Source: Alentia gelatinosa
Lineage: Eukaryota > Annelida > Polychaeta > Phyllodocida > Polynoidae
Length of the DNA: 64,000 bases
Reading direction: 5' to 3'
NCBI GenBank assembly: GCA_950022655.1
Contig: OX465583.1
Coordinates: 12,609,298 to 12,673,297 of the forward strand
Below the pieces are notes generated by a model. The model was not told where the DNA came from and searched no databases. It worked only from the letters and a program-made list of their open reading frames with translations. This document shows, piece by piece, positions 78 to 64,000 of the stretch; position 1 is the first letter of the stretch, and each line of letters begins with the position of its first letter. The translations under genes and the position numbers were made by a program.

Positions 78-474
78 GTAGAAACCAAACGAGAGTTAGT
101 CTTGTCAACTTTTATGCCACGATGGGCAGGTCGTGTATTACTACACGAGGCGTTACCTGAGTGTAGCGAGTAGCAGACCTGACCAGAGTGGTATAAGCAT
201 TGAGAAGGCTAACTTAGTTCGGTTTCATATTTATCCATCTCACCGATATACAGAGAAAATTTTGTAATTATTCATGTTAGTAGCGTGTTGACACTCATTG
301 GAGGATGGCCATATTTATCAATGCTGCCAGATCTACTTTCGTCATCTCGTCCCTGATTGGTCCGTTTTTTTATTCATCTCGCTGCATAAATAACACTTTA
401 TTCAACGCTCTGTCAAATACATTGAGTCAATGTTAAACCTATGGCTTTTTTATTAGGTGTAGGATAAGAATAAA
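78..474 (+). mobile_element. Foldback element, type B
   Basis: Hairpin arm starts TAGTAGAAACCAAACGAG near 78 and returns as TTAGTTCGGTTTC near 228; the tip near 136-170 is TATTACTACACGAGGCG. A module of about 240 bp follows and ends TGTAGGATAA near 469, after the internal motif TAAACCTATGG. No coding capacity. Confidence 0.7.
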
Positions 475-3779: not shown

Positions 3780-3807
3780 TTATGCAGCAGCGGTATTCCC
3801 ATGGTGC

Positions 3808-3881
<74 letters not shown>

Positions 3882-3902
3882 GCAGCGGTATTCCCATGGT
3901 GC

Positions 3903-3972
<70 letters not shown>

Positions 3973-4045
3973 GCAGCGGTATTCCTATGGTGCTGCATAA
4001 ATGACGCAGCAGTATTGGCATGGTCCTGCTTATATGCAGCAGCGG
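3780..4045. repeat. (TA)n microsatellite pair with a repeated 28-bp palindromic spacer
   Basis: Two (AT)n runs (about 3811-3878 and 3905-3969) are separated and flanked by near-identical spacers at 3783, 3879 and 3970, with degenerate copies at about 4000 and 4035. Each spacer begins ATGCAGCAG and ends TGCTGCAT, so it can fold on itself. Frames over this region are artefacts (IYIYIY runs). Confidence 0.9.
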
Positions 4046-6560: not shown

Positions 6561-6565
6561 CTCCC

Positions 6566-6811
6566 AAAGGGCCTTTCCCTATCTTCAGGTTTCTCTGTGA
6601 GATGGAAATCATCCTCCCCCAACCAATGAAGTAAATGCTGAGCAATAAGGTGGAAGGTGTCTGTTGATGGGGTTGATGATTGTGCACTAGGATAAATCCC
6701 CAAATGCACCACCTGCCAACTATTGTATAGTGCCCATTTCATGGGCAGATTTAACTCATAATCTTTATGTGTTTCATCATATAATTGGAGAAGGAAGATG
6801 TGGAGCACCAC
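6566..6811 (-). other. Unidentified coding-like stretch beside the satellite
   Basis: The minus strand reads about 80 codons of ordinary composition (KDYELNLPMKWALYNSW, DTFHLIAQHLLHWLGEDD) before the frame runs into the satellite. It could be a decayed exon or transposon piece; I recognise no family. No splice context supports it. Confidence 0.2.
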
Positions 6812-9486: not shown

Positions 9487-9797
9487 ATTATCTCACCCCT
9501 GGTATTCCCCCCCCCCCCCCCCCCCATAGACTGAACATTGGGAACTCATATCCAACGCCCATTCAGTATAATAAAAGAATAGAAAAAAATATCCAATGGG
9601 GTATTATGTCACAAAAGTTAGCCCATTAGTCAATGTGAAGGGTGATTAAATTCAGAAACCTATTCAAATTCATGGTCAGAGTTCGATCCCATCTCATTTG
9701 AAGCGATATGTAATTCACTTGGTTTCGCCTTATGAATTACTACATGATTCAAATTTGATGGGATACGAGCTCTGACCAAAGATTTTCATAGGTTTCC
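9487..9797 (+). mobile_element. Foldback element, type A
   Basis: Left end TTATCTCACCCC, a C-run (9507-9526), motif CTGAACATTGGGAACTC, a degenerate inner end (AGGGTGATTAAA near 9640), then a hairpin from CAGAAACCTATTC to ATAGGTTTCC with tip TGGTTTCGCCTTATG near 9720. Confidence 0.75.
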
Positions 9798-10814
9798 TCT
9801 ATAATACCTGTATGGTATATAACACTGGAAAGGCACTGTGTGATACAATATCTAGCATTTGAGTTGCTTGGAAATATTGAAAATACAATGTATGATCAAT
9901 TTGAAATATTGTATGTATATGAAAGAGATGTGCGATAGGGATGTTCTGAAGAAAAAAAATACGATTTCGCATTGTGTGACTGCCTTTGTAGTAGTATAAC
10001 AACGTTTCTCTTGAAAAATATATTTCCTAAATAATCATACTTCTTCAAGAGTTAGATTCACAGCAAAAGTAACCTTCGGGGGCAGATTCTATGTTCTCAT
10101 AAAAAAACAAATCTATTGAGCCCAGTATTGTAAATACATAATATATTAGACTTATGGAAAACAGGACATTTTCTCATTCCTTATATGTTTATTAGCATGT
10201 ATATACCATTGTATAAATATAATATAAACCATGTGCAATACCGAAAACCTCATTATAATCAATTGTCTGATCAATCAGAGCAAACAACCTCAGAAAATTA
10301 ATTACATAAAAAACCTTGAGCTAAAATTATATGATACATGGCTCCATCCTGAAAAGGAAGAAGCCCTATATACAATCAAATGATGAATGTATGTACATCA
10401 AAATTTCATTTGTACAGTTGTGTCCGTGATGAAATTTTCAATTAATCTGTGCTGCCTCGTCTATAACAATCATATCAAGAAGAAAAGACACTATGAACAC
10501 ATATATACCCCCTGCTGATTTGGGGAACATATGTATATATAAAGATATTTTGCAAAATGCAATGAATAAATGTAGAGATATGACAATATTCAAAAGAATT
10601 AACTTTATTATGATTTGTGCTTCTGAAAAAAACACCGAGTCAACAGAGAGAGCTGCCTTATAGATTTGCCTAAATTTCCAGAGACCAGTGGTTAGACCAG
10701 AACATATGAAAAATAAATGTTATAGGAGCTTGTACAAAAACTAACAGAATTTTTAACAAGCAGTGACAGAAATACCTCTATGGCAAGCCGATGCTACCTC
10801 GAATATGACAACTT

Positions 10815-11557
10815 CAGGCCTCCCAGTACCCCTCTTCCTCAATATAGGTTTTTCTATAGGTTTTGAAAATCAAAATATAGATTTTTATAGGCCTTTCAAG
10901 CCAAAATAACTAGGCTTTTATAGGTTTTTAGGGTTAACATATTCAGCATTACGGAGTCAATATCATATTGAACTGTTTATCTTCAGTTCTTTTTTTCTAT
11001 AAAAGTTACCTAGTATCAATTTGCAGGATGTCTGGCTCATCAGGTTAGACCTAGCACGCAAATGTGCATGACAGGTTTCCAACAGCCAAGCCAGACTACC
11101 AAGATGTCACGCAAACTGCTCATTCCCAAACATGTGTAAGATATCTTAAGTACAGTGAGAATGTGGCCGTAAGGAAATATAGGGTTATATAGGTTACTTT
11201 AACAAAAATAAAGGCTCAAGAGTTAAAATATTATCGAGAAACGTCACGAAATTTCATACAATTGTTTATATGGCATGAGTTGTTTTCGCGGAATGATATC
11301 ACAAAGCGGAGCTGAGTGATATCTGCAGGAGAAGACAACGAATGTAAACAAATGTATGAAATTAAGTGACGTTTAGATTTTATCCTACCCCATCACATGT
11401 TTTTAACTTCATATGTCACCTGTGGCATATAAATATTATATGGCACAACCGTGGCATACAGTCACTCCATGTTAAGTCTCTGGAGATTTATATGAGGGGT
11501 AGGATAAAGATCATTATAGATTTTATAGGTTTAATAGGTTTCACTAGAGGAGGCCTG
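10815..11557. mobile_element. CAGG...CCTG DNA element with 6-bp target duplication CAACTT
   Basis: Starts CAGGCCTCCCAGT and ends AGGCCTG, flanked on both sides by CAACTT (10809-10814 and 11558-11563). Same family as 16985-17486 (shared TAGGTTTTTATAGG repeats and TTTCCAACAG). It sits inside another dispersed repeat whose uninterrupted copy is at 26738-26811. A foldback element (11231-11512) is nested in it. Confidence 0.82.
11231..11512 (+). mobile_element. Foldback element, type B2, nested
   Basis: Arm TATCGAGAAACGTCACG returns as TTAAGTGACGTTTAG, followed by ATTTTATCCTACCCC and, after the motif CCATGTTAAGTCTC, the end GGGGTAGGATAAA at about 11498-11510. Second copy at 37685-37962. Confidence 0.72.
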
Positions 11558-12885: not shown

Positions 12886-12886
12886 C

Positions 12887-46397: not shown

Positions 46398-46532
46398 TTT
46401 CTAGAGCTCGGTCGCATCTCATTTGTATCGCTACTTAATTCATGTGGATTCGCCTTGTGAATTACTACACACTTCAAACTAGATGGGATACAAGTTCTGA
46501 TCTTAAACTTTCATAGGTTTCCTCTATAATAC
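46398..46532 (+). mobile_element. Foldback hairpin, type A (partial)
   Basis: CGGTCGCATCTCATTTG, tip TGTGGATTCGCCTTGTG, return CTTTCATAGGTTTCCTC and TATA. Confidence 0.7.
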
Positions 46533-48225: not shown

Positions 48226-48517
48226 TTATCTCACCCCTGGAATAAATGTCCATAGGCTTAACTTTGGGAACTCGTTCTCCATGCCCGTACAAGTATTGCA
48301 GTCCGTTCTCCATGGTCTATAGTCTATGTGTTGTCCATTCCTTTAGTGTATACAGGGGTGAGATAAATACAGAAAGCAACTCGTTTTGGTCAAAGAAGTT
48401 ATTCTCCAACTCGTTTGAATGCCATTTGATATTCACTCGGCTGTTGCCTCGTTCATATCACATCGCATCAAACTCGTGGAGAACGATAAATTTGACCAAA
48501 ACTTGTTGGTTTCTTCT
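48226..48517 (+). mobile_element. Foldback element immediately upstream of the DHX34 start codon
   Basis: TTTATCTCACCCCTGGAAT, CCATAGGCTTAACTTTGGG, GGGGTGAGATAAATACAG, then a hairpin with arms AACTCGTTTTGGTCAAA / TTTGACCAAAACTTGTTG and tip TCACTCGGCTGTTGCCTCG. It ends 43 bp before the ATG at 48560, inside the 5' UTR or promoter of DHX34. Confidence 0.83.
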
Positions 48518-48559
48518 TTAATCCTTGTCTATTCATTTCAAAGGACAGAAAATCCAAAG

Positions 48560-49143: not shown

Positions 49144-52100
49144 GTAAAATCCGAGTGCATACGCGAATATATTTTTTTTATATCCATTATATTTGATCTA
49201 AATAATAAGATTTGTTTATTAAACATAGTGTGTAGTTATCTGTTTTCTATTTTTCATATTTGTATCTGCATTTATATTTGCAATTAAGAGTAAATATATT
49301 TAGGTATCACATTGAAAACTCAACGTTGATTAGGCTTTAATCACTTTGCTTATCTCATGGTGTGTATAAACTGCGAATAAAGAGATTGCCTTCATTAAAT
49401 GTGGTTACTGCAAGGATGGTTCACTCGACTTTCAGGGGCACTGAAGCTTACAACCAGTTTTGGGATTTCCTGAAAAAATATCTCGCTTTTCGTAGGAAGA
49501 AAGAATCCAAGTCAAACAGTAAGATTGCTCATATCTTTGAATTTGGCTTTTCAATTTCTATTTATTTGATGTACTTAACGAATTAGTCTTTTTTTATTGT
49601 ACATTTTTCTTTTCTATATTTAGACGTCTGCTCAACCTCTTAGGTTGGTTTGAATACGGAAATAGTAGAGCCAAGGTACATGAAACGGTCTGACTATACA
49701 TGTTTTGTCAGAAATGAGTATACATAACGAAGTATATAGCACAATGTAGTTCAGTTGCTAATATATATATAAGATTAGTAGTTTGTTGATACAGTAAATA
49801 CATTACACATATATATATATATATAACATGATCTTTCAATGAGATCTTGTAGAGGAAACCTATGAAAGTTCAGGGTCAGAGCTCGTATCCCATCAAGTTT
49901 GAATCGCATAGTAATTCACAAGGTGACGCTGCGTGAATTACATAGCAATTCAAACAAGATGAGATCGAGCTCCGACCCTAAACTTGAATAGCTTTCTGAA
50001 TTAATACATTGACTAGTGAGCTAACCTTTGTGACATAATCCACCATTGAGTATTTTTTTATAAATACTCAACAGGCATTGGATACGAGTTCCCAATGTTA
50101 AATCTATGTGGAGAAATACAAGAGATGAGATAAATCCATGACTCTCACGGTATGCCCATACTCTGAGACGATTAAGGGCATAACGAGGATAATCTGAATA
50201 AAGGAATTTTTACTGAGTATAAATATTTTATTTTGCAGAGGAGCACATTAAGCGATCATTGAGTGGGCAACACGGGACCGATCTTGGGATTCCTAAGATA
50301 TACGACAGCCGTTATCGCATCAATATTGGAATCCCTCCCCGGGATATAGTAAACCGCATTCGTGAAGACCGTTACAGACCGGGTGATTATCTCGTCGAGA
50401 AATCTAGTTTGCTGTCGTTCTCATTTAGAATTTACTTTCAAAATTATTGCAATTCATGATTACCAACTATTTAAAACGTTACTTTAGGGATGCAGTATTT
50501 TATTGCCCTTTTATATTAAATATAGGCAACTTTTTTTGGGTATTTCAATTTTAATTTGAGGCACATTCTCCGGAACACTTTCTTCAATCCTGGTCTAGTC
50601 TATAACCTTAAAAAACATGATCGGCCTAGAATAAGTAGTTTCCTTAAAATCAATTACTGTTCAGTTAATTGCTCTTGTTGCACTCTGAGATAGGGCATGT
50701 ATACCCATTTTTAAATTTTTGTCAATGGAATATCGGAATTTTCAGCAAGTACTACTTTCTCTTTTTCTGTTTTTTTTTTAAGCATCGGCTTGTGATAGAG
50801 GTCTGATAGACAAGTCTTCATAATCTTTCTCTTTTTCTGTAACATTGCCAACCACAGGTGTTGAACCGTTGACGGAGAAGCGTGTCCAGCAGTTCAAAGA
50901 AATCTATCTCCTCCACCTGGACTTCCTCCAGAAGCAGAAGGTAATTTATATAAGATATTTAGATAAGATAATTTAACACTGATGTCCATTATGATATAAA
51001 GCTGAAGGCATCTATGTCATAGTATTTAGTGCCCGTTTTGGCCAATGTTCAGGCTATTTCAGGTTTTCAAGTTTCTTCTCTTCTAAAAACGTTATTGACC
51101 TATGCTTGTGAATTTCTCATAGCAAGTACATTATACATATACAAGTACTTCCTTTTATAAGATATGATACCGATCATAGACATATGGTCCATGTGCCCTT
51201 GTCCCTACTGTTCTGAGACAATGCGATTTGGAACATTGTAATATGGATTGTCACAAGAGCAAAACCAAGAACGAGTATTGTTACTCTACACCCATCAACT
51301 AAGATGACACCACTAATTGATGACACGCCCATCGCATTTATTGTTCTATACGTTCAAACTAAGAGCAAATGGTATGTTCATTATTGATGAATGAGCATGC
51401 AATTATAATTGAATAATAATGAAAAGGTTTGGGTTATATCCAGTCTCTGGATAGTTTTCTCTAATACACTTGCACCCAGTCAACTTGCCATTTTTTAAAC
51501 TGCCTGAGTCAAGGATCCAAACGTATCAAGCACCAGGGTTTTTCATACTGGAGTGATTGGTCATGGTCAGCTGGGTATGTCTCTGAGATCCTGGCTCCCT
51601 GCTCCTTTCCCAATGTCCTAATTTCATTCGTTTTTCTTTTTGGTGTAGTTCTCGAAGCTGGTGAAGATACGGAAGGACCAGGAGAACCTGCCCATTTTCC
51701 AGTACAAGGCGGCCATCATAGACGCCGTGCGCCAGAACCAGGTGGTGGTGGTGGCCGGCGACACGGGCTGCGGAAAATCTACACAGGTCAGTTGCGAGTT
51801 GCTTTATTTATTTATCTCACCCCTGTACACATAAAAGAACAGACAACACACAGGATGTGGACTATGGAGAACGGACTGCAATACTTGCAGGGGCATGGAG
51901 AACAAGTTCCCGATGTCAAGCCTATGGGACAAAAATACCAGGGGTGAGATAAAGAGGTTTATTTCATGCCATTTTTTCTTCTCCATAGACTTAACATTGG
52001 AAACTCGTATCTAACACCCATTAGATATTTAGGAAATATATCCAATGGGGGATAATGTCACAAATGTTAGCCCATTAGTCAATATTAAGGGTGAGATAAA

Positions 52101-55100
52101 TTCAGAAACCCATTCAAGTTTAGGGTCAGAGCTCGATCCCATCTCATTTGAATCACATAGCAATTCACGCGGCTTCGCCTTGTGAATTACTACATGATTC
52201 AAACTCGATGGGATACAAGCTCAGACCCTAAATTTCATGGGTTTCCTCTATAGTTCCTCATTCAATTTGTCGAACAGTTTTATATTATTACTTTTTTGTT
52301 CTTGGTGATACATCACATTAGTCGTCGACTGGCTAGTGCTGCTCCATGGCACCGATAAATCCCCCCCCCCCCCCGACTGACAACCGTTGAGTATGCGACT
52401 GCAAAAGAGCAACATATGATTTATTATCCACCAATACAAAGCATCCACAGAAAACACATAGAGAGTGTGTATGCACATCCCTGGCGCATACAGATATGTT
52501 GTATACTCCAGGGGGTGCATATGGAAAAATAGTACGTACGGAAAAATAGTGCATAACTGAGATGACCTGAAATCGACATGCCGCTTCTCCAGAATAGGTG
52601 GATAATAAATACAATATAGATTGGTTTCAGATAAAAGCAGTTGTATGCTCCTCAGAGTTGACTCTATGCAAAATCTTCGCATATGCTTGGATCAACTCCT
52701 AGGAGCATACAGCCCAGTCAATATTGTGTATGTCTTGCGGGCCTGTCCATCACCCTGGTAGAATCCCCCTTTGAGATTACTGAGAAACTATTCCAGAACC
52801 TTGACTAAAATTGACCTTGAATTGCACTTCTTCCTCATTTTTATTTTCTCTCTTGTATACTTCTAGGTGCCACAGTACCTGTTAGAAGGTGGATTTGAGA
52901 AGGTTGCTTGCACCCAGCCTCGGCGCATTGCCTGCATATCCCTGGCGAAACGTGTAGCGTTTGAAACCCTCAATGACTATGGCTCCCAGGTTGCATATCA
53001 GGTAACTCACTTGTTGTTCTACGTCTTATTCTCAAAACCATTGAAAATGTTTCAATGGTGATTCTAAATTTGTTTTAATTGTGTAAAATTTGCATCGAAA
53101 TTACAACAATACCGCGAATTGGATTGCCCCAGCATTAATAAAATGTCTTCTTTTGTGACCATTATTTTAAAAATTATGGAAAATTATCTTATTTAAGTCA
53201 TCCTCCTCATAATGGAAATAATCTAATTAAATATACTTCACCAAATATAGGTGCGATTTGAGAAGACGAAATCGGCAATCACGAGAATCCTTTTCTTAAC
53301 CGAGGGTAAGTATTTCCCTAGATTTATTGATCATGAGACGTTTGTTGGGCCTTTAACATTTATTGACTCCAGATACTAACACTGCATACACTCTCTTACT
53401 CTTAGATATTATGAAAGAAACTGAGGAGTGTTTGGTCTATGCCATCAAGCTTGGACTATTCAGGGACTGTCTCATCTTGCAGAGTTTCAATAATAGTAAT
53501 GTTATCATTCATTGTAAATATCATAATGTTTGTATAATCACCGTTTGAGATGTTGGATATATGTATGTTACTGTTCTATTGCTTGGAAGACCAATTGTAA
53601 AATTGAACGCAACAAAGAACCTTTACAAAAAAAAAAATATATATATATATGAGCAAGGCGATAGCCAAGTGAATATTCAAATCTAATAGAACAAATTAGA
53701 CGTTAAACTACCCAAACAAACGAGTGAATATTCTGAAGCGTTTCAAACAAGATGGCTATCAGGGGACACAGATGAAACACAAATATGTTTCTCTTTTTTT
53801 TTTCGCCTCGAAATATTTATCGGTTTATCACCAATTAAGTATGAGTCATCGTACTCGCATGCCTATTGAGTACGAGTTCCTAATGTTAAGCCTATGTACG
53901 TTTACACTAGGCTATGACACGTTATACTTTTATCTTACAGGTTTACTGCTGCGACAAATGACTAACGACCCACTGCTGGAGAAATACAGCGTTGTCCTTA
54001 TTGACGAGGTATGAAGCTTTTCATCTCTAATCATCATACAGGGCCATCTTCTATTTTTTTTTAATTTGCACAAAAATAGTAGGTTACATGGCCTCTGGTA
54101 TTCTGGCCCGTAGTTGAACATTGATACATATTTTCTCCTACGTAATAATGATCAGGCTCAAAATATTATACACAGGGATGCAAGGTTTTCGGAAAATGGC
54201 GAAATCCGACATTTCATATACATCGGCAACACTTGCAGTGTGAGAATTTATACATCGATTCATAGCCATTCAGTACCCAAATACTATTATAAATGATCTA
54301 TTTTTATAAGAGTTTTAATGTAAATCTAATTTTTAATGTTTCTTGTTTCTTAAATCATAATGGATTCCCTTAGGCAGTTCACATCTGGAATAACTTTAAT
54401 ATCAAATTCGGACGAGGCTAAGCTATGACTTACACTGGGAAGTAGCTACCGTGAAGTGGGTGGCAATTTGAACTGCTGCCCCTTTTTATACGGCATATAG
54501 CCTATGATCCATGGGCACCGCCATGACGCCCCCCGAGTAGGTGTTCTTCACTAAAGGAGGTGAAAAAGTAGCTGTTCTTCACTAATGGAGGTGCAAAAGA
54601 AGTGAGTGATAATTGGGAAATGTCACTTTTCTTGCCTTGCTCACATATTTAAATAAACTGTTCCATGTAAAAATCATCATATCATGGGTTTTAACATTAT
54701 ATCTTCCTGCTCTGGGATCAGTGTAGAGAGTCAAAGGAACCTTAGTAAAACATTGAAAGGCAGCTGAATTTCGTAAGAACAAAGAGCCAGAATACAGGTT
54801 TTGCCCCCCGACCACCTAGTGACTGCTTCATGAACTAACAATGGCTCTGTCCCCTATAGTCTTGTACCATGTGACCCCAATTGATGGACAGCTGTCACAG
54901 CGGATGACAGTTTTTTGTTGTCAAGGCCAAAGTCCTGTTGTTATGTAGTGTCAACAACAAGTGGGGACCTGTTATTGCTGTCATCTTAGGGGAAAATCAG
55001 CGAGTCTATGGCAGTTTCATACTAGGAATCTTCAGGCTGCATAGATTAGTGTTATTATCAAGAGATAATGAACTAGAGATGCTGTAGCAAACCTAAGGAG

Positions 55101-58100
55101 ATTGGCAAGGGTTCTCAAAGTATCCAGGCTATTTCCACTGGGGAAGAAGTGAACCAGGGCTGGATAATTGATGTTTTATTGGAAAATAAACTGTGTCCCC
55201 AATGTTTGAGTTTTAATAAAATAGTTGTAGCAAAATATTGTGTGTGTGGGGGGGGGGGTAACTTTCTTACTTACCATGACGAAATCCAGGATAATCAGAT
55301 GTAAGTTTTCCTATTTTCCAAGGAAATACTTGTTTTCATTTTTATAAAAAGATATAAAAAATTCTTGTGTAAAATAAAGAAAATAAATTGGCCTCATGTA
55401 TACCAATGAACACTGCTTCAAACCTCCCCACACACCCCAACCCCATTCCATGGCCAATAATGATGTGTTTTCCACGTTTTTTCAAGTCCCTCTGTGTCCA
55501 CATGAAAAATATTTCCTTTTTTTTCACGACCCCACCTGACATCTCTGAATAATTGCCACATTCAAAAATATATATATATTATATCATCTGTATTGTCTGT
55601 GAACAGGTCCACGAGCGGCACATCCACACTGACTTCCTGCTGGGCGTGATGAAGTGCCTGCTACAGCAGCGCGCCGACCTCAAACTCGTCCTCATGTCAG
55701 CCACCATCAACATCAACCTCTTCAGCGACTACTTCGATAAGGCGCCCGTCGTCAAGGTAAGTCTCACGTGAGGTGGTCAAGAACTGAAACTCTCATGTCG
55801 CCTCTCATTTCTACAGCTTCACTTAATTGCCTGATTAACTCAAAACTCCACTACAAGCAAATATTGGAAGACCGCCCATGTGGCGAATCGTTTGGATTTT
55901 TTTGATTTTTTTAAAATTTTATTATTATTCAGCATCAGTTGTGATTAGAATTGTGTCTGCCTCGTATCCTTAACTAGAAATATATATTTTTGAATTTTGA
56001 TTTTTTTTTAAATCAACATATCCTATTAAAGTTCACAATATACTAGAAATCGCAGGTCACTGCGATAAAGTCACCCTATACCCACATCACCATAACTATT
56101 CCTTCAAAGTTCTCCACAGGTTGTCAACAACCATTGAATACTATCTACCATTTATGTAACATACTCTTTGCTGTTCCATGATCATATTCAATCATTTATT
56201 GTTATATATGTATTGTAGATATGTTATGTTATTTCACATAAATGCTTAAACTGAGAATGAAGAATACACTCTGCAAGAAGCAAAATGTAAGTCTGTCAAT
56301 CTTGTTGAGTTTTTGTCCAATGAATAAAAAAAAATGTCACAAAAGTGTATGTATAGATATTAGATAAGAGTTTACAATTTGATATTTCTAGGTGCCTGGT
56401 CGACTGTACCCCATAGAGCTCATGTACCTGCCCGTCACAGAGGAGGAGACGGGAGCCAAGACACAGCGCTTAGACCCCAGACCCTACGTCAGAGTACTGC
56501 AGGGAATAGAGAACAAAGTAAGACACGAGTTGAATCTACCGTGAACGGACAATTCTTCATGAGAGTATAGATATACACAATATTACCATGATTTGGATCT
56601 GCGTGGTCGTATTATCCACGTATTTGACGCATAGTAATACTCGGAGCGATAGTGAGGAGTTTTGCGTAGTGTCAACTACAAGAAGAATACGGCCACACTT
56701 TCAAAGTTTAAGAGTTTAAGCTGTTCAAAAAAATACCATAAAATGTGGAACGGAGAATGGGTTGATTGCAACTTTACACCTGGATTCTGGTGCCATCTAT
56801 GAACCTCCACTGTGATAGATATTGAAAACATTCAGGAATTTTACTAGATGTCATGTCAGGACTTTGTTAACAAATTGTCAAAACGACAGTGGCGGAGCAT
56901 GAATACAAGTTTTGTATAACAAATTTTTTTTTTAAAACCCTGAGCTTAAAAAGTATGAATAAAATTTCTTATTTTTAAAAAGTATCTTTACCACCCAGTT
57001 TTTCTGTCTGCAGTACCCGTCATCAGAGCGTGGCGATGTGCTCATGTTTCTCAGCGGTATGACGGAGATTATGACCGTCGTGGAAGCCATCCAGCTGTAC
57101 GCCGAGCAGACAAAACGCTGGATCGTGCTGCCACTACACAGTGAACTCTCTGTCTCCGAGCAGGACAGGGTCAGCACCATCTACTCACCTATATTTAATC
57201 ACGCCACATGTATTATGAGACTTTCCATATTATCTCACCCCTGGTACAAGATTTATTTAAACTACATCGAGAATCGTATAAATAGCCACTCCACAAGTTT
57301 GGATGGGCCGCAATTGTCATTGAGGCGAAGCCGAGTGACGATTATGGCACATCCGAATGAGTGTATTTTACAATTCATGTGCAGTTCTGGATTTATCTCA
57401 CCCCTTTCTATGACATTAAATAGCATCACAATATCAGAATAGTTATTATTATATACCTATGCCTGTATTAACTACGTATACTGCCCGCTCCTACCCATGG
57501 CGTATTTATATCCGTACGGCACACTGTGACGTACGGGGTATGTGATCACGTGACTATGTAACATTTCGCCATTTTTAGGTATATAATAATACGAAAACAG
57601 GCTGACTGTCTTCGTACATCAAAATACTTGGTAAAATTATTGATCCCATACATCCCTCTGCCTACGGCATCGGGATGTATGGGACCAATAATTTCACCGC
57701 GTATTTTTGACGTACGAAGACAGTAAGCCAGTTTCCGTATAGAATTTACTTAGCAAATCCATTTATGACGTCATCTCTCATTCACTGCATCACAGTTGTG
57801 GCATAGTATTGTCACTTTACGGGGGTGATTGTTGAGCATTTTTTTTATTCTAATGTTATTCTAATGTTATTAATGTTATGGCTAAACTTGTACCAGGGGT
57901 GAGATAAAGCAATAGGAACAACATTGAAAAAAATATACACACCGATCACCCATATAAAGAGACAATACAATGCCATGGTCGTGACGGAGTGATATGAGAT
58001 GACTTCATAATCGACTGGTCAATCAGCAGTCTGGAAAATAAGCAAGACATCAACCTGGAGATTTATACATTCCTAACTGGATTTGTGAAGTTATTTGAAT

Positions 58101-61100
58101 TATTCTGATATAGCAATGCTATTCTAATGTCTGTGAAAGGGGTGAGGTAAATCCAGAGCCGCACTTGAATCTTAAAGTGAATGATACTCCTCTCATTTGG
58201 AATGCACTGTAATCGTCACTCAGCTTCGCCTCGATGATTTCAGCGCAACCAAACTTGTGGCGTATTGTCAAATTGTACGATTCTTGATGCAGTTATATAT
58301 ACATTTCGTAGCTATAAGCAGATTAACACATACCTGTACTTAATATGTTTTGAGCAATAGGACATTGAATCTACTGGTAACTTATACAGAATGGTCAAAT
58401 AAGTCTCATCTCATATCATTAGTGAAGGAAAAATTGCTTAAGTGTGTATGGATTCAAACTGCTCGCTTGCATATTAAAAACTTGTAATAATGTGTTCATA
58501 CATGGTATTCAATGTGTCGGTGGCTTTAGTAGAAACGGTAATCATAACCACGTTGTCTCGATGTCTGTGTTCTTCAATTTGATAGACTCTTCGCCGACCT
58601 TTAATCTTCTTTTTTTTTTCTTCTTTTTTTTTCCCGGCTTGTACAGAGGTGTTTATTGCCACGTCGTAATAATCTTTAATCTATTATTTGATTTTGTTTC
58701 TGCAGGTGTTTGATTACCCTCCAGAAGGTGTGAGGAAGTGCATCGTCTCCACAAACATTGCCGAGACATCGGTTACCATAGACGGGGTCCGCTTCGTTGT
58801 CGACTCCGGCAAAGTATGAAAGATAAACATATATACCATTTCTTTATTTGTTCGTACTAAGCAATGCTGAGTTATTTCTGAAAAATTACATGGGAATGAA
58901 TAGGATGTAATCATACCAGGAATATCATTCAAGACTTAAAAAATATTTAAAAAATATATATATTTAAGGAACCCTATTTTAAGAAATTAAAAGAATGTCA
59001 GCCCAATACTTCGGAAACTAATCGGTTGCAATTTCATAGTTTTCTTTAATTTTCCCTCAGTTTGTTCAAAGACATGTCCATATCACTACGATTTGTTATG
59101 CGTATGAATGTTTGTATAGGGCACAGAGTGGTTGTTAGTTCTGCCATCATCCGCCAGGAAATTGAAAGACAGCGCCACTGCAGTCGGGGGGCAACCATTG
59201 TTATGAGTTTTTATAATAATCCATTGATAGTCATGGGACAAGGCTAAGACCTCTCTCTATGGCAAGCCCAAAAAAAAATCTTAAATAAAAATCATTGATA
59301 ACTGGACCCCCCACTTGGGACCCGTTTTTTAGACAGGATAATCATGAATAGCGACCGTTTGAGGCCATAGTCTAAATATCATACAATTGGAAATAATTAT
59401 AGAATGCTTGGGGCCAATGGTCTTTGTATGTATCTTGAAAACCGTCTTGAATCTTTGATATAAACGCTAATCACGATTATCTTATCTAAAAAACGGGTCC
59501 CTGGTGTTTTGGTTTAGCGTCGGGGGGGGGGGGGCGTGATGGGAGGGAGATGCCTCCATAACACAATAGCTCTGTGCCCTATAGATACGCTGCCGTGTTT
59601 ATATCGTACTGAGATGGTATTTTCAGGTGAAGGAGATGAGTTTTGACACGGAGTATAAGATGCAGCGTCTACGTGAGTTTTGGATCAGCCGAGCCAGCTC
59701 TGAGCAGCGCAAAGGAAGAGCGGGTACGTGTTTACCGTCATCATGATTTTATGTTTAGATATTTCTTAAGAGATGCTTTAAAGAGTACTTAGTGTTAGTA
59801 GTAGTTACGGGTTACTGGTCATCAATACAAAGAGGTCGTTTTGTGTCAGCCTAAAGGGCGTGCTCCACCAGGCCGATTTTTCACCCGATCAATTGTTCCT
59901 GGGCCCTTAAGAGGAAGCTCACACATTGTAATGTATTTAATTCTGATAATAATAGTTTAATAAATGACCATTTTCAAAGATTTGAGAAATTCTAGAGCAT
60001 CCAATAATGATCAGTGAGTGTCTGGCTACGAAATCGGCGACCGTCGGTCCAGTGGAACACCCCCTTTAGGAGGCTGTTTGCATCACTTTAATAGGCTGAC
60101 CCATACTTATATCACGTACCATCATTCATTTTCAGAACTTAATAGAAACTGAACGAGAGTTAGTAGTGTTAGTGCTGATTGCACGACGGGCAGGTCACGT
60201 TACTGCGTGAGATGTTAGTCGAGTGCGGTGAGTAGCCGACCTGACCAGAGTGCGATAAACACTCACACTACTAACTCGAGTTCGGTTTAGTGTTTATCCT
60301 TCCCCATCTCCATGACTTTAGAATAATAATTAGCCATTTTAGTTGCTCCAAGTTGCTTGAGTGAGTGAAATTTGCAGCTGCTGCATTGCCAAGTAAGGCC
60401 ATAGGTTGTCAATATTTCATAGACCACATTAGTGTGACGGCTATGACAGCTATTGTTATTGTTAATCTAGATGAGTAAATGTCCAGTTTGCAAATACCTG
60501 TTAGATTTCAGTCCATCTGTTATCATTCGGACCATTCTAGTTGGCATCTAGAGTTCGCATTACATAGAAATAGCATTGTCAAAAATAATTCACTAAGAAA
60601 ATTTAATGTCTAAAAAAAAAATTAGAATGCAATCACACGCCGAAATGTAGTGTCGTAATAATAGTTACTATCTGTACAAATACAAACAAAGTTCAAATAA
60701 ATTGGTTGAAAAGAGAAAAAAAACTCTGAAAAAGAAATTACTGATGTTGTTGGTTTTGTGAATAAATTCCTTGAGATATTTAAAAAAATTTAAAACTCTG
60801 CTTGTTGTGACAGGGCGTACGGGTCCGGGAGTGTGCTACAGGCTGTACGACGAGAAGACGTACAACGACCTCCAGCCCTACTCCACGCCGGAGATCCACC
60901 GCGTGCCGCTCGACGCGCTCGTCCTCCAGATGGTCTCCATGGGCCTCAACGACGCGCGCCGGTAACTCACACCAACTCTTTTACTGCCTCACCAGTTTAT
61001 AGTCAGATACTTCTCATCTTTTTATCCCTACTCGATAACACCCAGCCACAGTCTGAACAAGATTTTTATCATCTATTTGTATGAATAAGAGTAAGAATAG

Positions 61101-64000
61101 GTAATTATATAGAACGTCCTGACCATGCTGTACAAGTCACAGAACGAGATGCTAATTTACAGTTTGTACGGACCGAGGCGTTTACGCCGAGTTCCGTACA
61201 AATGGTAAATTATCATGGAGTTCTGTGGCTTGTACAAGCATGGTTGGACGTTATATATTTACTATATACCCGAAATTTTTTAAAAATAAATTTTAATTTA
61301 GCTTAACAACTAATATCTTAATAAACGTGTATGGCAAGGTGGTCCGTATTTTAGTGTACGGACCAGTCCGTACAGTATCTTTACGTTATATGGCAAAACG
61401 GTGCGTATTTACAGTATATACAGCATGGGTATATAGTAATTATCCGAATACTTACCTTGGTAGAAGTGTGAAGGAGAATTAAGGTTCTTGCGAAGCCTAG
61501 GAACACTTTCGAGTGTCCTAGGGTAACAGGGACCCGCCTTCCAGCCCCAACATTTACAAAAGCCACCTTAGGAGAAATATCTATAAAATCATCAAATAAT
61601 AAATTTTTTTAAATAATCACGGGTAAATTTCTTCTATTGAATTCAAGAGTTACTTGAATAACACTAAAACTTTTATATAACAGGACTAGCATCTTTGACA
61701 CTAGAACACACATAGCACAGTGAAAATACATTTGAAAAAGTTAACCCCCCCCTCCACCCCTAACCTACGCTAGGCTTAGTATATGTGTAAAAAGGAGAAT
61801 GAGATTTTCATTCGTTCACGCAATACAGTTTATAGCACAAACCCGTTCGTTTTAAATTTTCTCCAGATCAATGGAACACTCCCAATATGCACAGATCCGC
61901 CCCATCCAACTTGGTAGATGTTCACTTTATATTATTGTTTCCACAGTTTTATTATATTGTTTTCACAGTTTTCCTATTTATATTTGGGATTTATTGATTT
62001 GTGTTTTCTTTTACAGATTTCCCTTTATAGAACCTCCTAATGCAGACTCCATTGAGAACGCCATTCAGTTCCTCATTGAACAGGTACGTAGGAAACCATC
62101 TGGCAATTCATCTTAGCCTGGTATAAATATCCATAGGCTTAACTTTAGGAACTTTTCAACAGGCTTGCGAGTACGGTAACTCATACTCAATGGGTGATAA
62201 ACAGATAAATATTTCCAGGCTAAGATGAAATCAGAAACATATTCGTGCTTGGTCTGAGTCCTCATTCCCCATCTCGTTTGGAGTGCTTCAGAATATTCAC
62301 ACGGCTATCGCCTCGTCCATATTACTGTGCACTCCAAACTCAATGGCGAACAGGGACTTTAAACACTCAGCAATTTCTTTCTTAGTTTCCAATATGCTTT
62401 CTATAAGGAGTATGATAACCCACAACAACTTCCAAGGAATTCATAATGGTTTTTCTTTTGGTTTTGTCTTTTTAAATTCTTAAATTCTCAAATGGTTTTC
62501 AGTTCTTTCATTTGATTAGGTAGTATAGTAAACAGCAATACTTCCAGTATAAACAAGCGTTTTCGGCAGTTAGTAGACGGTAATAAGTGGTGGTATAGAT
62601 GATGTACTTACTACAGATCGCCAGTATATCGTGGTAATGTTTTATGGGATAATTTACCATTTACAACGCAGAGTTTAGCAACTACTAGGGAGTTCAAAAA
62701 TGAGATTAAAAACATGTTTTCTGTGTATGACTGGAAATGATAATGACATTAAGATTTATTTGCGGATGTCATTAGAACGGAACTAATTTCATCACTTTCA
62801 TATTTATATCACATCCCTTATTCATACTTTGTAACCACGTGTCGGTTAAAATGTGTATATGAATGTTATGTGATTCCATGTATAATTTAAGCTCGGTGGA
62901 AGATCTCAGCTCGGTGAGAACCGGAGTCAAAAAAAAAAAAAAAAAAAGATTTTCCCAACACTTAACCAACCTCAAAAAGGGATGCTTAATGAAATGGAGA
63001 AGTTTTTACCTATTACGGTAACCAAACTAGCTCCACCACTAAGAATATTCTTACCTAAATAAGCAGCAATAATTTCATCATTATATTACTCTTTATTGTT
63101 TGATATTGGTATGTGATAGTTGTTATTAACTGTTCTTCCTTTCAATTCTTGCTGAAATGTTATCATGATATCTGATGGTACTTGGTTATTCTTGATGTCA
63201 ATAAATGCTGCTATCTAATAAAAAATATTCTTACCTGTCTGTTTGACTAAAGCCATCACATGTGTCTTCTGTATTGACTTGATATTTATTGCTATTTGGT
63301 GGTGATGGAATTGAACAAACTCTTGATGATGCAGAATGCGCTGACTAACGACGAGGTGATGACGGCCATCGGACAGATGCTGAGTCAGCTGCCCGTGGAC
63401 GTGGTCGTCGGCAAGATGCTCATCATGGGCTCTTTGTTCCTGGTAAGTGTGTTTTAAGTGCTGATTCCACCAACACACAAGATATAGCCAGGTTAGTCAC
63501 GATTTGCTTGTCTTGCTAAACCTTGGTTTTGAATCTGGACGATTCTCAATTCGTAGCCACTAAAATACATCATTCATTTTGGTTTTCTACGTGATCCCAC
63601 TCGGCTTTGCCTCGGGAGATTACTCCACAAAGCTCATGGCTAATTTTCATTTACTGTGGATGCCTATGCAGTTCCTCTTAGCATTGTTAAGTACAGTCAT
63701 TAGATTTTTGTAATCCAGTAATATGGATGTAAGGAAAACCTGTTCCAATACAGATGACATTCTAACACTTATTGTATTTAATAAAAAAAAAAAATAATAA
63801 TAAGTTGAAAAAAGGCACAACCAAAGATAGAGAAATAAAGTTGGATAACAGGGTAATGTTTATTGCTTGCTTAGATTTACAACGTTTCGGATATTTGATT
63901 ATCCTTCATCAGGTATGATTTTTAAGTTTGTGTTAAACGGTATTGTTGTTATTTTTGTAGATGACGGAGCCTGTTCTGTCTACAGCCTCAGCACTGAGCG
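48560..64000 (+). CDS. DHX34: ATP-dependent RNA helicase DHX34 (NMD DEAH-box helicase), 5' part, 17 exons
   Basis: Seventeen exons with matching phases encode the first 763 residues; human DHX34 has about 1140, so the C-terminal part lies beyond the right edge. Visible motifs: [10 protein letters not shown] (335-343), Ia TQPRR (360-364), II DEVH (429-432, split across an intron), III SAT (461-463), [14 protein letters not shown] (589-601), VI QRKGRAGR (637-644), then the start of the winged-helix/ratchet region ([19 protein letters not shown]). In human cells DHX34 joins the SMG1-UPF1 surveillance complex and promotes UPF1 phosphorylation in nonsense-mediated decay. DHX34 was chosen over DHX8/DHX38-type helicases because of [18 protein letters not shown] and [20 protein letters not shown]. 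Odd: about 140 extra N-terminal residues, rich in Lys/His and Arg-Ser. The reading starts at the ATG at 48560 (A at -3). Confidence 0.95.
49436..49518 (+). CDS. DHX34: DHX34 coding exon 2
   Basis: Residues 195-222: [28 protein letters not shown]. Matches the human region just after FFREEDY. Acceptor ACTTTCAG, donor GTAAGA, leaves in phase 1. Confidence 0.9.
49845..50133 (-). mobile_element. Foldback element, type A, inverted
   Basis: Outer end GTAGAGGAAACCTATGAAAG, tip ACAAGGTGACGCTGCGTG, inverse motif CCCAATGTTAAATCTATG, end GAGATGAGATAAA. In DHX34 intron 2, about 100 bp from exon 3. Confidence 0.78.
50239..50382 (+). CDS. DHX34: DHX34 coding exon 3
   Basis: Residues 223-270: [37 protein letters not shown]. 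Acceptor TTTTGCAG. Donor GTGATT after 50382 is weak but is the position that restores the frame in the next exon (phase 1). Confidence 0.85.
50858..50940 (+). CDS. DHX34: DHX34 coding exon 4
   Basis: Residues 271-298: [28 protein letters not shown]. Acceptor ACCACAG, donor GTAATT, leaves in phase 0. Confidence 0.9.
51649..51786 (+). CDS. DHX34: DHX34 coding exon 5 (Walker A)
   Basis: Residues 299-344: [36 protein letters not shown]. Carries the ATP-binding P-loop. Acceptor GTGTAG, donor GTCAGT, phase 0. Confidence 0.97.
51803..51957 (+). mobile_element. Foldback-family terminal module without a hairpin
   Basis: TTTATTTATCTCACCCCTG, motif GATGTCAAGCCTATGG, end CCAGGGGTGAGATAAAG. Begins 20 bp after the donor of DHX34 exon 5. 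Confidence 0.72.
51968..52253 (+). mobile_element. Foldback element, type A
   Basis: Lacks its own left end; ATAGACTTAACATTGG, inner end GGTGAGATAAA, hairpin with tip CACGCGGCTTCGCCTTGTG, outer end GGTTTCCTCTATA. Confidence 0.78.
52428..52735. mobile_element. Family C foldback element
   Basis: TTTATTATCCACCAATACAA, GATAATAAATACAATATAG near 52602, then hairpin TTTCAGATAAAAGCAGTTG with GGATCAACTCCTAGGAGC. Confidence 0.72.
52867..53001 (+). CDS. DHX34: DHX34 coding exon 6 (motif Ia)
   Basis: Residues 345-389: [40 protein letters not shown]. Acceptor CTTCTAG, donor GTAACT, phase 0. Confidence 0.97.
53251..53305 (+). CDS. DHX34: DHX34 coding exon 7
   Basis: Residues 390-407 plus one base: [19 protein letters not shown] 55-bp exon. 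Acceptor AATATAG, donor GTAAGT, leaves in phase 1. Confidence 0.93.
53640..53926 (-). mobile_element. Foldback element, type D, decayed
   Basis: GAGCAAGGCGATAGCCAAG (tip, displaced), then GAGTACGAGTTCC and AATGTTAAGCCTATG, and ACTAGGCTATGAC near the end. Its last bases lie about 15 bp before the acceptor of DHX34 exon 8. Confidence 0.6.
53941..54008 (+). CDS. DHX34: DHX34 coding exon 8 (first half of DEAH box)
   Basis: Residues 408-430: [20 protein letters not shown] then IDE. Acceptor TATCTTACAG, donor GTATGA, phase 0. A foldback-element remnant ends about 15 bp before the acceptor. Confidence 0.95.
54173..54285. mobile_element. CAGG-type DNA element fragment
   Basis: CAGGGATGCAAGGTTTTCGG then CCGACATTTCATATAC and TCGATTCATAGCCATTC; inverse of part of 42981-43203. 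The far end is lost. Confidence 0.7.
54286..55606. other. DHX34 intron 8, remainder
   Basis: No element, RNA gene or coding segment recognised in the rest of this intron. Confidence 0.55.
55607..55756 (+). CDS. DHX34: DHX34 coding exon 9 (second half of DEAH box, SAT motif)
   Basis: Residues 431-480: [38 protein letters not shown]. Together with exon 8 gives DEVH, the variant typical of DHX34. Acceptor GAACAG, donor GTAAGT, phase 0. Confidence 0.97.
56392..56517 (+). CDS. DHX34: DHX34 coding exon 10
   Basis: Residues 481-522: [35 protein letters not shown]. Acceptor TTTCTAG, donor GTAAGA, phase 0. Confidence 0.95.
56571..56720. mobile_element. Foldback hairpin, family C type
   Basis: GTGGTCGTATTATCCACG, TGACGCATAGTAATACTCGG near the tip, return GTGTCAACTACAAG and ATACGGCCACACTTTC. 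Confidence 0.62.
57014..57169 (+). CDS. DHX34: DHX34 coding exon 11 (RecA2)
   Basis: Residues 523-574: [22 protein letters not shown]-like [19 protein letters not shown]. Acceptor TCTGCAG, donor GTCAGC, phase 0. Confidence 0.95.
57232..57908. mobile_element. Foldback element split by a type J element
   Basis: ATTATCTCACCCCTGGTAC at the left; hairpin with tip CATTGAGGCGAAGCCGAGTG at about 57317-57336; TTTATCTCACCCC near 57391; the right end GTACCAGGGGTGAGATAAAG is at 57890-57908. A type J foldback occupies 57445-57745 between them. Confidence 0.75.
57445..57745. mobile_element. Foldback element, type J, nested
   Basis: TTATTATTATATACCTATG, TTTAGGTATATAATAATACG, then a hairpin (CTGACTGTCTTCGTAC / GTACGAAGACAGTAAG) with tip CTGCCTACGGCATCGGGATG. 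Confidence 0.75.
58128..58275 (+). mobile_element. Foldback hairpin with GGGGTGAGGTAAA end
   Basis: GGGGTGAGGTAAATCCAG, TTGGAATGCACTG, tip CACTCAGCTTCGCCTCG, partial return CAACCAAACTTG. Confidence 0.65.
58706..58813 (+). CDS. DHX34: DHX34 coding exon 12 (motif V)
   Basis: Residues 575-610: [36 protein letters not shown]. Acceptor TCTGCAG, donor GTATGA, phase 0. Confidence 0.97.
58814..59626. other. DHX34 intron 12
   Basis: No recognised element. It contains an 11-13 bp G-run at 59522-59534 and a short frame (59062-59247) with no similarity I can name. Confidence 0.55.
59627..59723 (+). CDS. DHX34: DHX34 coding exon 13 (motif VI)
   Basis: Residues 611-642 plus one base: [29 protein letters not shown]. 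Acceptor TTTTCAG, donor GTACGT, leaves in phase 1. Confidence 0.96.
60137..60310 (+). mobile_element. Foldback element, type B (hairpin and inner end)
   Basis: ATAGAAACTGAACGAGAG, tip TTACTGCGTGAGATGTTAG then TCGAGTGCGGTGAG, return CTCGAGTTCGGTTTAG, inner end TTTATCCTTCCCC. The far end is not recognisable. Confidence 0.75.
60814..60961 (+). CDS. DHX34: DHX34 coding exon 14
   Basis: Residues 643-691: [40 protein letters not shown]. Acceptor GTGACAG, donor GTAACT, leaves in phase 2. Strongly GC-rich third codon positions. Confidence 0.96.
61090..61440. mobile_element. Foldback element, type J
   Basis: Hairpin of about 140 bp (CATGCTGTACAAGTCACAG / CTGTGGCTTGTACAAGCATG) with tip CCGAGGCGTTTACGCCGAG; flanked by TTACTATATACCC near 61259 and GGGTATATAGTAATTA near 61427. 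Confidence 0.75.
62017..62083 (+). CDS. DHX34: DHX34 coding exon 15
   Basis: Residues 692-714: [20 protein letters not shown] then EQ. Acceptor TTTTACAG, donor GTACGT, leaves in phase 0. Confidence 0.95.
62106..62385 (+). mobile_element. Foldback element, type D
   Basis: CTTAGCCTGGTATAAAT, CCATAGGCTTAACTTTAGG, TTCCAGGCTAAGATGAAA, hairpin tip CACACGGCTATCGCCTCG. Begins about 25 bp after the donor of DHX34 exon 15. Confidence 0.76.
63335..63442 (+). CDS. DHX34: DHX34 coding exon 16
   Basis: Residues 715-750: [36 protein letters not shown]. Acceptor GATGCAG, donor GTAAGT, phase 0. Confidence 0.95.
63485..63660. mobile_element. Decayed foldback hairpin
   Basis: AGCCAGGTTAGTCACG at the left and the tip CCACTCGGCTTTGCCTCGG near 63598-63616; the arms pair poorly. 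Confidence 0.45.
63880..63913 (-). ncRNA. Hammerhead-ribozyme-like core
   Basis: Minus strand CCTGATGA, hairpin GGATA / TATCC, then GAAACGTTG. Same core as 12390-12424 with a different paired stem II. No GUC-type cleavage site was identified nearby. Lies 47 bp before DHX34 exon 17, antisense to it. Confidence 0.38.
63961..64000 (+). CDS. DHX34: DHX34 coding exon 17, cut by the window edge
   Basis: Acceptor TTTTGTAG, then [13 protein letters not shown], matching human LVEPVLTIAAALS. The exon continues outside the window. Confidence 0.9.
   Translation, partial: MTEPVLSTASALS

What the first reader, a model, noticed from the sequence alone, without database searches (positions are those of the whole stretch)
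78..63660. Several unrelated-looking foldback families share one architecture and one hairpin tip
Types A, B, D and J have different arms, yet many copies end their hairpin in a version of CGAGGCGAAGCCGAG (or its inverse CTCGGCTTCGCC / CTCGGCTATCGCC). Clear cases: 13690-13730, 18629-18663, 37391-37424, 52161-52193, 57317-57336, 58210-58240, 28251-28280, 48432-48450, 61180. ATTACTAC often sits beside the tip, also in family C. The hairpin is joined to a module with inverted TTTATC(Y)nACC-type ends and an internal CCATAGGCTTAACAT motif. Conservation of the tip across diverged arms suggests it is recognised by something. The GCGAAGC in it is known to form an exceptionally stable single-stranded DNA mini-hairpin, which would suit movement through single-stranded DNA. 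This could be an undescribed class of non-autonomous element.
Basis: partly seen in the sequence, partly recalled or inferred. Interest (0 to 1): 0.76.

Follow-up and report, generated by a model that had tools for sequence, protein, structure and literature searches.

The report
Mini-elements ending in tip-conserved hairpins
An animal-like genome carries many short jumping-DNA elements that all end in a long DNA hairpin whose sides differ between families while its very tip stays much the same; they are built like the known rolling-circle 'Helitron2/Helentron' elements, but with a far larger end hairpin, and no gene that could move them was found.

Summary
The 'foldback families' are one architecture: a 5' terminal repeat (TTATCCTACCCC, TTATCTCACCCC, TTATTATCCACC, TTATTATATACC...), in four families CCATAGRCTTAACAT, the repeat again inverted, a few bases, then a hairpin of mostly 139-190 nt at the 3' end. 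The window lies in a 1.23-Gb assembly where CCATAGGCTTAACAT (up to 1 mismatch) occurs 75,419 times (control 51) and CGAGGCNNNGCCGAG 10,551 times (control 44). Between families the arms are alike only within about 9 nt of the loop. Arm pairs co-vary in family A. The tip strand follows element orientation in 24 of 25. On the opposite strand the tip is GA-stem-C(GNA)G-stem-GA: 77 of the 100 listed loops are GNA, a class known as extraordinarily stable DNA mini-hairpins. Two insertions into tandem arrays show no target duplication. This resembles non-autonomous Helitron2/Helentron elements (HINEs), but two defining features were not met (5' hairpin; 3' repeat near the end), and no RepHel gene with these ends was found: one PF14214 match and a few decayed helicase pieces. 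Best reading: a long-hairpin variant of rolling-circle elements whose hairpin tip acts as the termination signal.

The parts
69..467 (-). family A element A1 (tip 142-165)
9488..9808 (+). family D element D1; tip 9714-9736; 3' repeat decayed
11175..11507 (-). family B element B1: 5' repeat 11496-11507, 3' repeat 11380-11391, tip 11298-11320 (loop GGA on the opposite strand)
13190..13471 (-). family B element B2; tip 13256-13278 (loop GAA)
13630..14000 (-). family A element A2; tip 13701-13723 (loop GTA)
14315..14712 (+). family A element A3; tip 14625-14648 (loop GTTA)
17620..17940 (-). element with ATTATATACC-type repeats and a 186-nt hairpin, no TC/TC tip
18570..18923 (-). family A element A4 inserted in a 94-bp tandem array; neighbouring units are the empty site; no duplication
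19152..19901 (+). family C element C2 (5' repeat region 19152-19356, 3' repeat and hairpin 19794-19901)
27570..27765 (+). family C hairpin C1; tip 27655-27679
28065..28345 (+). family J element J1; tip 28256-28279 (loop GATA)
28653..28770 (+). family J hairpin fragment J2; tip 28670-28693
37190..37441 (+). family D element D2; tip 37397-37419 lies in the opposite orientation
37672..37959 (-). family B element B3; tip 37749-37771
38388..38570 (+). family D hairpin part D3; tip 38479-38501
39554..39842 (+). family C element C4; tip 39814-39837
41902..42258 (+). family M element M1 (repeat ATTACATACCTA, hairpin 42092-42254, loop GCA)
44612..44903 (+). family D element D4; repeats 44612-44623 and 44742-44753; tip 44818-44840
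46402..46532 (+). family D hairpin fragment D5; tip 46439-46461
48226..48517 (+). family J element J4; tip 48432-48455; directly upstream of an SR-rich open frame
49850..50136 (-). family D element D6; tip 49915-49937
51812..51952 (-). element body with both repeats but no hairpin, next to D7
51960..52254 (+). family D element D7; tip 52164-52186
52419..52720 (+). family C element C3; tip 52669-52695
57245..57907 (-). family K element K2 (5' repeat 57896-57907, 3' repeat 57393-57404, tip 57317-57339) carrying nested M2
57446..57756 (+). family M element M2, hairpin 57576-57752 (loop GTA), inside K2
58098..58310 (+). family K 3' part K1; tip 58215-58237
60134..60330 (-). family A 3' part A5; tip 60204-60227
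61100..61439 (-). family P element (repeat TTACTATATACCC, hairpin 61107-61258, loop TTTA)
62110..62387 (+). family J element J3; tip 62296-62319
63595..63618 (+). isolated tip remnant (Q)

Best explanation
These are short (mostly about 270-430 bp) non-autonomous transposons that move, or moved, by a rolling-circle, single-strand route like Helitron2/Helentron elements. Shown here: the order of parts; insertion of repeat module and hairpin as one unit without target duplication in two cases; arm pairing kept by two-sided changes in family A; and a tip kept in sequence, structure and orientation across families with unrelated arms. Inferred: the 3' hairpin is the transposition terminator. When the strand is unwound the hairpin forms, its tip (a GNA mini-hairpin with flanking GA.GA on one strand) fixes its fold, and the transposase recognises the tip while the roughly 70-bp stem is free to change in sequence as long as it pairs. 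Pairing of the 5' repeat with the 3' repeat would mark the end point, as proposed for Helitron2. The enzyme is inferred to be a RepHel-type HUH protein supplied in trans; it was not found and may be lost or very rare.
For: Order of parts: sequences; an inverted-repeat pair (11 or more of 12, within 1,500 bp) was found for 52 of 77 long hairpins (several of the 52 pair with a neighbour's sequence rather than their own 5' end). Repeat-to-repeat distance is 113-270 nt in 29 of 34 5' ends that carry the motif. A4 and a D element in L063 sit in tandem arrays whose units give the empty site without duplication. Tip: 33 of 77 hairpins carry an exact TC-stem-loop-stem-TC centre, against 2.5% of shuffled centres and 2.9% of random positions. 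In 14 family representatives the loop is closed by C-G in 13; identity is 0.59-0.60 in the 3 nt beside the loop and 0.22-0.40 beyond 9 nt. Loop census: 77 of 100 GNA, 16 AAA or ATA, 7 others. Covariation in 12 family A hairpins: 16 of 50 pairs with two-sided change, reached by 0 of 500 shuffles. Orientation the same in 24 of 25. Precedent: in Helraiser a swapped hairpin stem left about 90% activity, while a changed loop was like deleting the hairpin (PMC4778049, section read).
Against: No autonomous copy with these ends: one PF14214 match in 1.23 Gb, with no exact end repeat, motif or tip in 18 kb around it (one long hairpin without such a tip lies on its 5' side). PIF1 pieces at five places; the one on C9 lies about 0.9 kb from an element, but that element is an ordinary compact one; a decayed helicase on C2 followed by a weakly endonuclease-like frame (PF03372, E 0.0015, below the cut-off) shows no such ends in the 6 kb read. 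No 5' hairpin. The 3' repeat lies about 150 nt from the end, not 20-60. Within families the tip decays like the arms. 44 of 77 hairpins lack an exact TC/TC tip. Of the 14 representatives 8 have a GNA triloop and 2 a GNNA loop; AAA, AGA (GCA by another reading), GTAT and TTTA are the rest. One of the five covariation measures, further pair types, was reached by 101 of 500 shuffles.
Confidence: 0.7

Rival explanations
1. A distinct rolling-circle or other single-strand transposon lineage, not Helitron2/Helentron, with its own enzyme (another HUH protein or an unknown one). The likeness to Helitron2 ends would be convergent.
For: Near absence of RepHel genes against about 75,000 motif copies; closest sampled pairs 95-96% identical, so activity is probably not ancient; no 5' hairpin; very long 3' hairpin.
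Against: The combination of end repeat, subterminal inverted copy, terminal hairpin and no duplication is that of Helitron2/HINE. A decayed helicase with an endonuclease-like frame hints that Helentrons once existed here. The family search is only a loose first look.
Confidence: 0.17
2. Ordinary MITEs of a cut-and-paste (DDE) superfamily or Foldback elements, with an accidental internal palindrome.
For: Short, very abundant, inverted repeats.
Against: The inverted repeats are not at both termini: in the families read one of them is followed by the hairpin (one body at 51812-51952 has no hairpin). No target duplication in two empty-site cases. The tip conservation would be unexplained.
Confidence: 0.06
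3. The hairpin is kept as an RNA (small-RNA precursor or structured transcript), not as DNA.
For: Arms co-vary. Tandem GA pairs are stable in RNA too (recalled).
Against: The GNA triloop class is defined for DNA (title in the reference list of PMC6479982). The tetraloops seen (GATA, GTTA, GCTA) are not of the GNRA type (recalled). No Rfam family matched at these elements; the only two window hits are tRNA-like SINEs. No expression data were available.
Confidence: 0.07

Closest known systems
Helitron2 and Helentron/HINE non-autonomous elements (PMC3627910, passages; PMC4067079, outline and parts 1-2 of 3 of the Results; DINE-1 of Drosophila is one)
   Same: Short 5' terminal repeat, inverted copy subterminal at the 3' side directly before a 3' hairpin; T before the 5' end in 8 of 11 window 5' ends; no target duplication; short, highly repeated, non-coding.
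   Different: Hairpin of mostly 139-190 nt instead of a 5-10 bp palindrome; 3' repeat about 150 nt from the end instead of about 20-60; no 5' hairpin or inverted copy beside the 5' repeat found; conserved internal CCATAGRCTTAACAT in four families; GNA/GA tip; no partner found.
Oyster Cg_HINE elements (PMC7492417, passages)
   Same: Subterminal repeats, 3' palindrome, no duplication, dispersed in an invertebrate genome.
   Different: Cg_HINEs carry tandem-repeat arrays and a complementary inverted copy beside the 5' repeat; neither was seen here.
Canonical Helitron, Helraiser (PMC4778049, section 8 and passages)
   Same: 3' hairpin as terminator whose loop matters and whose stem sequence can be exchanged; most family A copies end in CTAA (CTRR type).
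   Different: No 5' TC start here; Helraiser has a 19-bp palindrome and 5'-TC/CTAG-3' ends, and no inverted end repeats are described in what I read.
d(GCGAAGC) and GNA mini-hairpins (titles in the reference list of PMC6479982; passages of PMC10527192)
   Same: C(GNA)G loop on short GC stems, as in the tips here.
   Different: Met in what I read as short synthetic oligonucleotides; here as a tip shared by many transposon copies.

Membership tests
Helitron2/Helentron (HINE) | 5' asymmetrical terminal inverted repeat 0-2 bp from the 5' end | tested here: met
   Element starts TTATC... at the junction in the A4 empty site; other families alike by sequence
Helitron2/Helentron (HINE) | 3' repeat subterminal, directly upstream of a 3' hairpin | tested here: met
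Helitron2/Helentron (HINE) | 3' repeat about 20-60 bp from the 3' end, short palindrome | tested here: not met
   hairpins with a GATAA-type repeat mostly 139-150 nt, so the repeat lies about 150 nt from the end
Helitron2/Helentron (HINE) | 5' terminal hairpin or inverted copy next to the 5' repeat | tested here: not met
   17 5' ends folded with DNA parameters, z -1.4 to 1.3 against mononucleotide shuffles (one of them, A1, was anchored past its repeat); no inverted copy seen beside the 5' repeat in the printed sequences
Helitron2/Helentron (HINE) | no target site duplication | tested here: met
   two insertions in tandem arrays
Helitron2/Helentron (HINE) | insertion at TT / T-rich site | tested here: inconclusive
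   T precedes TTATC in 8 of 11; A4 target GTGTT^G; two or three target bases at the junction are not accounted for
Helitron2/Helentron (HINE) | autonomous partner with RepHel-endonuclease and the same ends | tested here: inconclusive
   Sought, not found: one PF14214 match without such ends in 18 kb; one decayed helicase plus endonuclease-like frame without such ends in 6 kb; the search is a loose first look and the follow-up protein search did not complete
Canonical Helitron | 5' TC and 3' CTRR with short hairpin about 11 nt upstream | tested here: not met
   5' TTATC; CTAA in most family A copies only; long hairpin
MITE of a DDE superfamily | terminal inverted repeats at both ends and target duplication | tested here: not met
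Foldback (FB) element | long inverted repeats at both termini | tested here: not met
   hairpin at one end only

The most novel reading that the evidence does not exclude
A separate lineage of single-strand transposons in which a GNA mini-hairpin with flanking tandem G.A pairs, carried at the top of a freely exchangeable stem of about 70 bp, is the recognised end signal. Its autonomous enzyme is not RepHel or has vanished, and the non-autonomous copies number in the tens of thousands or more.
Probability: 0.2. Interest if true: 0.85.

Novelty: new variant of a known kind. Interest (0 to 1): 0.62.

Why it matters
How a rolling-circle transposase knows where to stop is, to my knowledge, not settled. 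One experiment showed for Helraiser that the hairpin loop matters and the stem sequence much less. This genome holds what looks like the natural version of that experiment: many families with different stems and a shared kind of tip, in thousands of copies, with the loop mostly obeying a known rule of DNA stability. It makes the question 'is the tip read as single-stranded DNA?' directly testable with oligonucleotides. It also gives a case of a very large non-autonomous population without a visible partner.

Tried and rejected
Viral contigs: CCATAGRCTTAACATT gave 43 hits. One had TTATC within 50 nt upstream, and none had blastn similarity to the window at E 1e-3, so I took them as chance. Motif strings in papers: one unrelated paper. 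Paper searches for Helentron/Helitron with hairpin or palindrome terms (20 of 78,425 listed; 9 of 9; 15 of 73) showed no title or abstract start about long-hairpin elements of this kind; I read only the papers named in this report, in part. Rfam: two tRNA-like hits in SINEs. A 5' hairpin: not found. The decayed RepHel on C7 as partner: in 18 kb no exact end repeat, motif or tip; one long hairpin without such a tip (L074 6073-6197), 71% alike over 176 nt to a hairpin element in L047, lies on the 5' side of the RepHel frames. The PIF1 piece on C9 (L081): an ordinary compact element lies about 0.9 kb away and does not enclose it. Relatives of the RepHel piece in the protein database: 8 proteins, none with a telling name. 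Longer elements with coding sequence in the sampled loci: none recognised by eye. Five of 34 motif-bearing 5' ends lacked a 3' repeat within 300 nt by the pattern: D1 (its 3' repeat is decayed), two in L047, one in L050, and one in L057 that seemed to run into another element's 3' end. Flank-joined searches gave two usable empty sites; the other matches that I aligned did not fit at the junction, and of four array units aligned with the L063 element one did not either. Folding energies of the two tip strands: GA strand lower in 19, equal in 5, TC strand lower in 5 of 29, so no strong support. The in-window ORF list shows no transposase by eye.

Sampling limits: of the 20 stretches the first two were chosen because they hold listed motif hits and 18 were set at round coordinates; L044-L051 were chosen by the motif. 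The 77 hairpins come from L044-L071 and the window, have score 15 or more and at least 90 nt, and are what is left after a word filter removed tandem-array rows; the scan of L052-L071 before these filters, at score 16, has 74 rows. The 52 elements were picked by a looser rule than the 52 and are not the same set. The 29 tips were chosen by eye around known elements, and the 14 representatives by hand, one or two per group. The 100 loops are the first listed on contig C1 of 10,551.

Full report
What the window is. A 64-kb piece of an animal-like genome: three frames on the minus strand match the RNB domain (PF00773), two above the cut-off; tRNA-like SINEs; microsatellites. It lies at G000:C5:12609298-12673297 in an assembly of 1,234,393,884 bases in 101 contigs. 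The species is not known to me.

Check of the observation. The tip GGCGAAGCC occurs 4 times against 0.10 expected, CCATAGGCTTAACAT 15 times (up to 2 mismatches) against 0.09. Twenty-one long hairpins were found and none in three Markov versions of the window; three of the 21 are of another kind.

One architecture. Read in a common orientation, the families show: a 5' repeat (A and B TTATCCTACCCC; D and K TTATCTCACCCC; J TTATCTCAGCC or TTATCTCACCCC; C TTATTATCCACC; M TTATTATATACC or TTATTACATACC; P TTACTATATACCC), forms of the motif CCATAGRCTTAACAT in A, B, D and J, a variable body, the inverted repeat (for example GGGGTAGGATAAA), a few bases, and a hairpin. Its outer ends are (G/T)AAACC..GGTTTC in A and D and GAAAC..GTTTC in J, followed by a short tail such as TACTAA (A) or CTCTATA (D). 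Outside the window the same plan recurs. In the window and 28 other stretches there are 77 long hairpins, 52 of them with an inverted-repeat pair of 11 or more of 12 bases within 1,500 bp; some of these pairs join a neighbour's sequence. Hairpins with a GATAA-type repeat mostly measure 139-150 nt; the whole list runs from 91 to 190 nt. Repeat-to-repeat distance is 113-270 nt in 29 of 34 motif-bearing 5' ends. All-against-all comparison of 52 elements (alignments of 150 nt or more) gives 21 groups, 11 of them with more than one member; the best pairs, apart from one overlapping pair, are 95-96% identical.

Copy number. CCATAGGCTTAACAT with up to one mismatch: 37,714 forward and 37,705 reverse, control 26 and 25. 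CGAGGCNNNGCCGAG: 5,235 and 5,316, control 19 and 25. These count motifs, not complete elements.

Insertion. Element A4 (18570-18923, minus) interrupts a 94-bp tandem array; the neighbouring units give the target GGTGTT^GTACC, while the filled site reads GGTGTT-TTATCC...CTAA-GAACC, with no duplication. A D element in L063 sits in another tandem array, again without duplication in three of the four units aligned; the fourth did not align at the junction. In A4 two bases beside the 3' junction, in L063 two or three, are changed or missing, so the ends are not fixed to the base. T stands before TTATC in 8 of 11 window 5' ends.

The hairpin. In family A (12 copies, 5 from the window and 7 from other loci) 93.3% of cells pair and 16 of 50 pairs show two-sided change. 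Four of five measures are reached by 0 of 500 shuffles; the fifth, further pair types, by 101 of 500. Sliding the partner by 1-3 columns drops pairing to 30-38% and two-sided pairs to 1-4. The shuffle control does not remove relatedness, so the sliding control and the two-sided changes weigh more. Between families the arms are unrelated: with 14 hand-picked representatives, compared without gaps, identity is 0.59 and 0.60 in the three bases beside the loop, 0.34-0.46 in the next six, and 0.22-0.40 beyond. Within families D and A the tip is not better kept than the arms, which fits dead copies of differing masters.

The tip. In element orientation it reads TC-stem-loop-stem-TC: exact in 33 of 77 hairpins, against 2.5% of shuffled centres and 2.9% of random positions; at least two of the 33 readings look misassigned. 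The 44 others include family D (GC/TT), decayed tips and hairpins of other kinds. The opposite strand carries GA...C(GNA)G...GA. Among the first 100 of 10,551 genome matches of CGAGGCNNNGCCGAG, 77 loops are GNA (GAA 51, GTA 16, GGA 9, GCA 1), 12 AAA and 4 ATA (expected as CpG decay of GAA and GTA), and 7 others. None is of the reverse form TNC, although the stem GGC/GCC would allow it, so loop and flanks are coupled on one strand. Families with other stems keep the rule (CACC/GGTG with GCA, TGCC/GGCA with GTA). Tetraloops include GATA, GTTA and GCTA. Among the 14 representatives 8 have GNA, 2 GNNA and 1 GTAT; AAA, AGA (GCA by the reading) and TTTA (P) remain. Single copies with ATT (C1) and AACA (J4) also depart. 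The TC strand agrees with element orientation in 24 of 25 hairpins in which both are known; D2, whose tip is flipped, has no exact TC/TC and is not in that count. GNA loops are described as producing extraordinarily stable DNA mini-hairpins (title in a reference list; the original paper was not read). That tandem GA pairs in a pyrimidine-GA-purine context are also stable is recalled, not from a call. Simple folding energies favour the GA strand in 19 of 29 tips, with 5 equal and 5 the other way, but these parameters are crude here.

Mechanism. A Helitron hairpin acts as terminator; in Helraiser a foreign stem with the native loop kept about 90% activity, while a changed loop behaved like a deletion. 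For Helitron2, pairing of the two repeats was suggested to fix the end point. The pattern here, a conserved tip on free stems behind a matching repeat pair, is what both ideas predict. This step is inference.

Partner. One PF14214 match exists in the assembly by this search: a broken RepHel on C7 with PIF1 pieces, weakly like Helraiser among PDB sequences (E 0.0088). In the 18 kb around it there is no exact end repeat, motif or tip; one long hairpin without such a tip lies on its 5' side. PIF1 gives nine matches at five places: this one, a second broken one about 13 kb away, a locus on C1 with three matches that looks like a host gene with introns, C2 and C9. The C9 piece lies about 0.9 kb from a complete, ordinary element (L081 from 2528), which does not enclose it. 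The C2 piece is followed by a frame with a weak endonuclease match (PF03372, E 0.0015, below the curated cut-off), the arrangement of Helentrons, but without these ends in 6 kb. The search is a loose first look, so rarity is shown only within its sensitivity.

Verdict. It works like Helitron2/HINE; membership is not established, because the 5' hairpin and the short 3' end were tested and not met and no partner was found. I rate it a new variant of a known kind, with a minority chance of a separate lineage.

Noticed in passing
window 57245-57907: An M element is nested inside a K element, and a further 5' repeat stands head-on at 57230.
   Followed up: partly
window 48226-48560: A J element lies directly upstream of an SR-rich open frame and may supply its 5' leader; the ORF runs through both.
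   Followed up: no
window 37397-37419; L064 around 2379: Two hairpins carry the tip in the opposite orientation, as if the centre had flipped between the arms; in L064 the element's orientation is itself uncertain.
   Followed up: partly
window 51812-51952: Element body with both repeats but no hairpin, head to head with a D element.
   Followed up: no
L073 3965-7621 (minus); L078 and L079: Broken RepHel genes; L073 holds the only PF14214 match found in the assembly. A frame downstream of the helicase (3968-5107, no Pfam match at E 0.01) recalls an OTU-like protease to me by eye.
   Followed up: partly
L084 (G000:C2:34004001-34010000): Decayed helicase followed by an endonuclease-like frame, the domain order of Helentrons.
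   Followed up: partly
L074 6073-6197; L047 951-1126: Long hairpins with GGTATGT/GGTATAT-type repeats but no TC/TC tip, 71% alike over 176 nt: a sister group with another tip.
   Followed up: partly
window 4921-6561: About 1.6 kb of diverged CAACCACC repeats; GC skew of 4001-8000 is -0.41.
   Followed up: no
window 23226-23357, 29386-29423, 36168-36223: Short arrays with 17-18-bp units of related look (GACACCCCGCGTAAGTG type) around the RNB-domain exons.
   Followed up: no
window 25509-26245, 28877-29176, 32461-32918, 34175-34557: tRNA-derived SINE copies.
   Followed up: no
L052 3269-9998: Frames with reverse transcriptase, GIY-YIG and NADAR domains; the first frame looks Penelope-like to me.
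   Followed up: no
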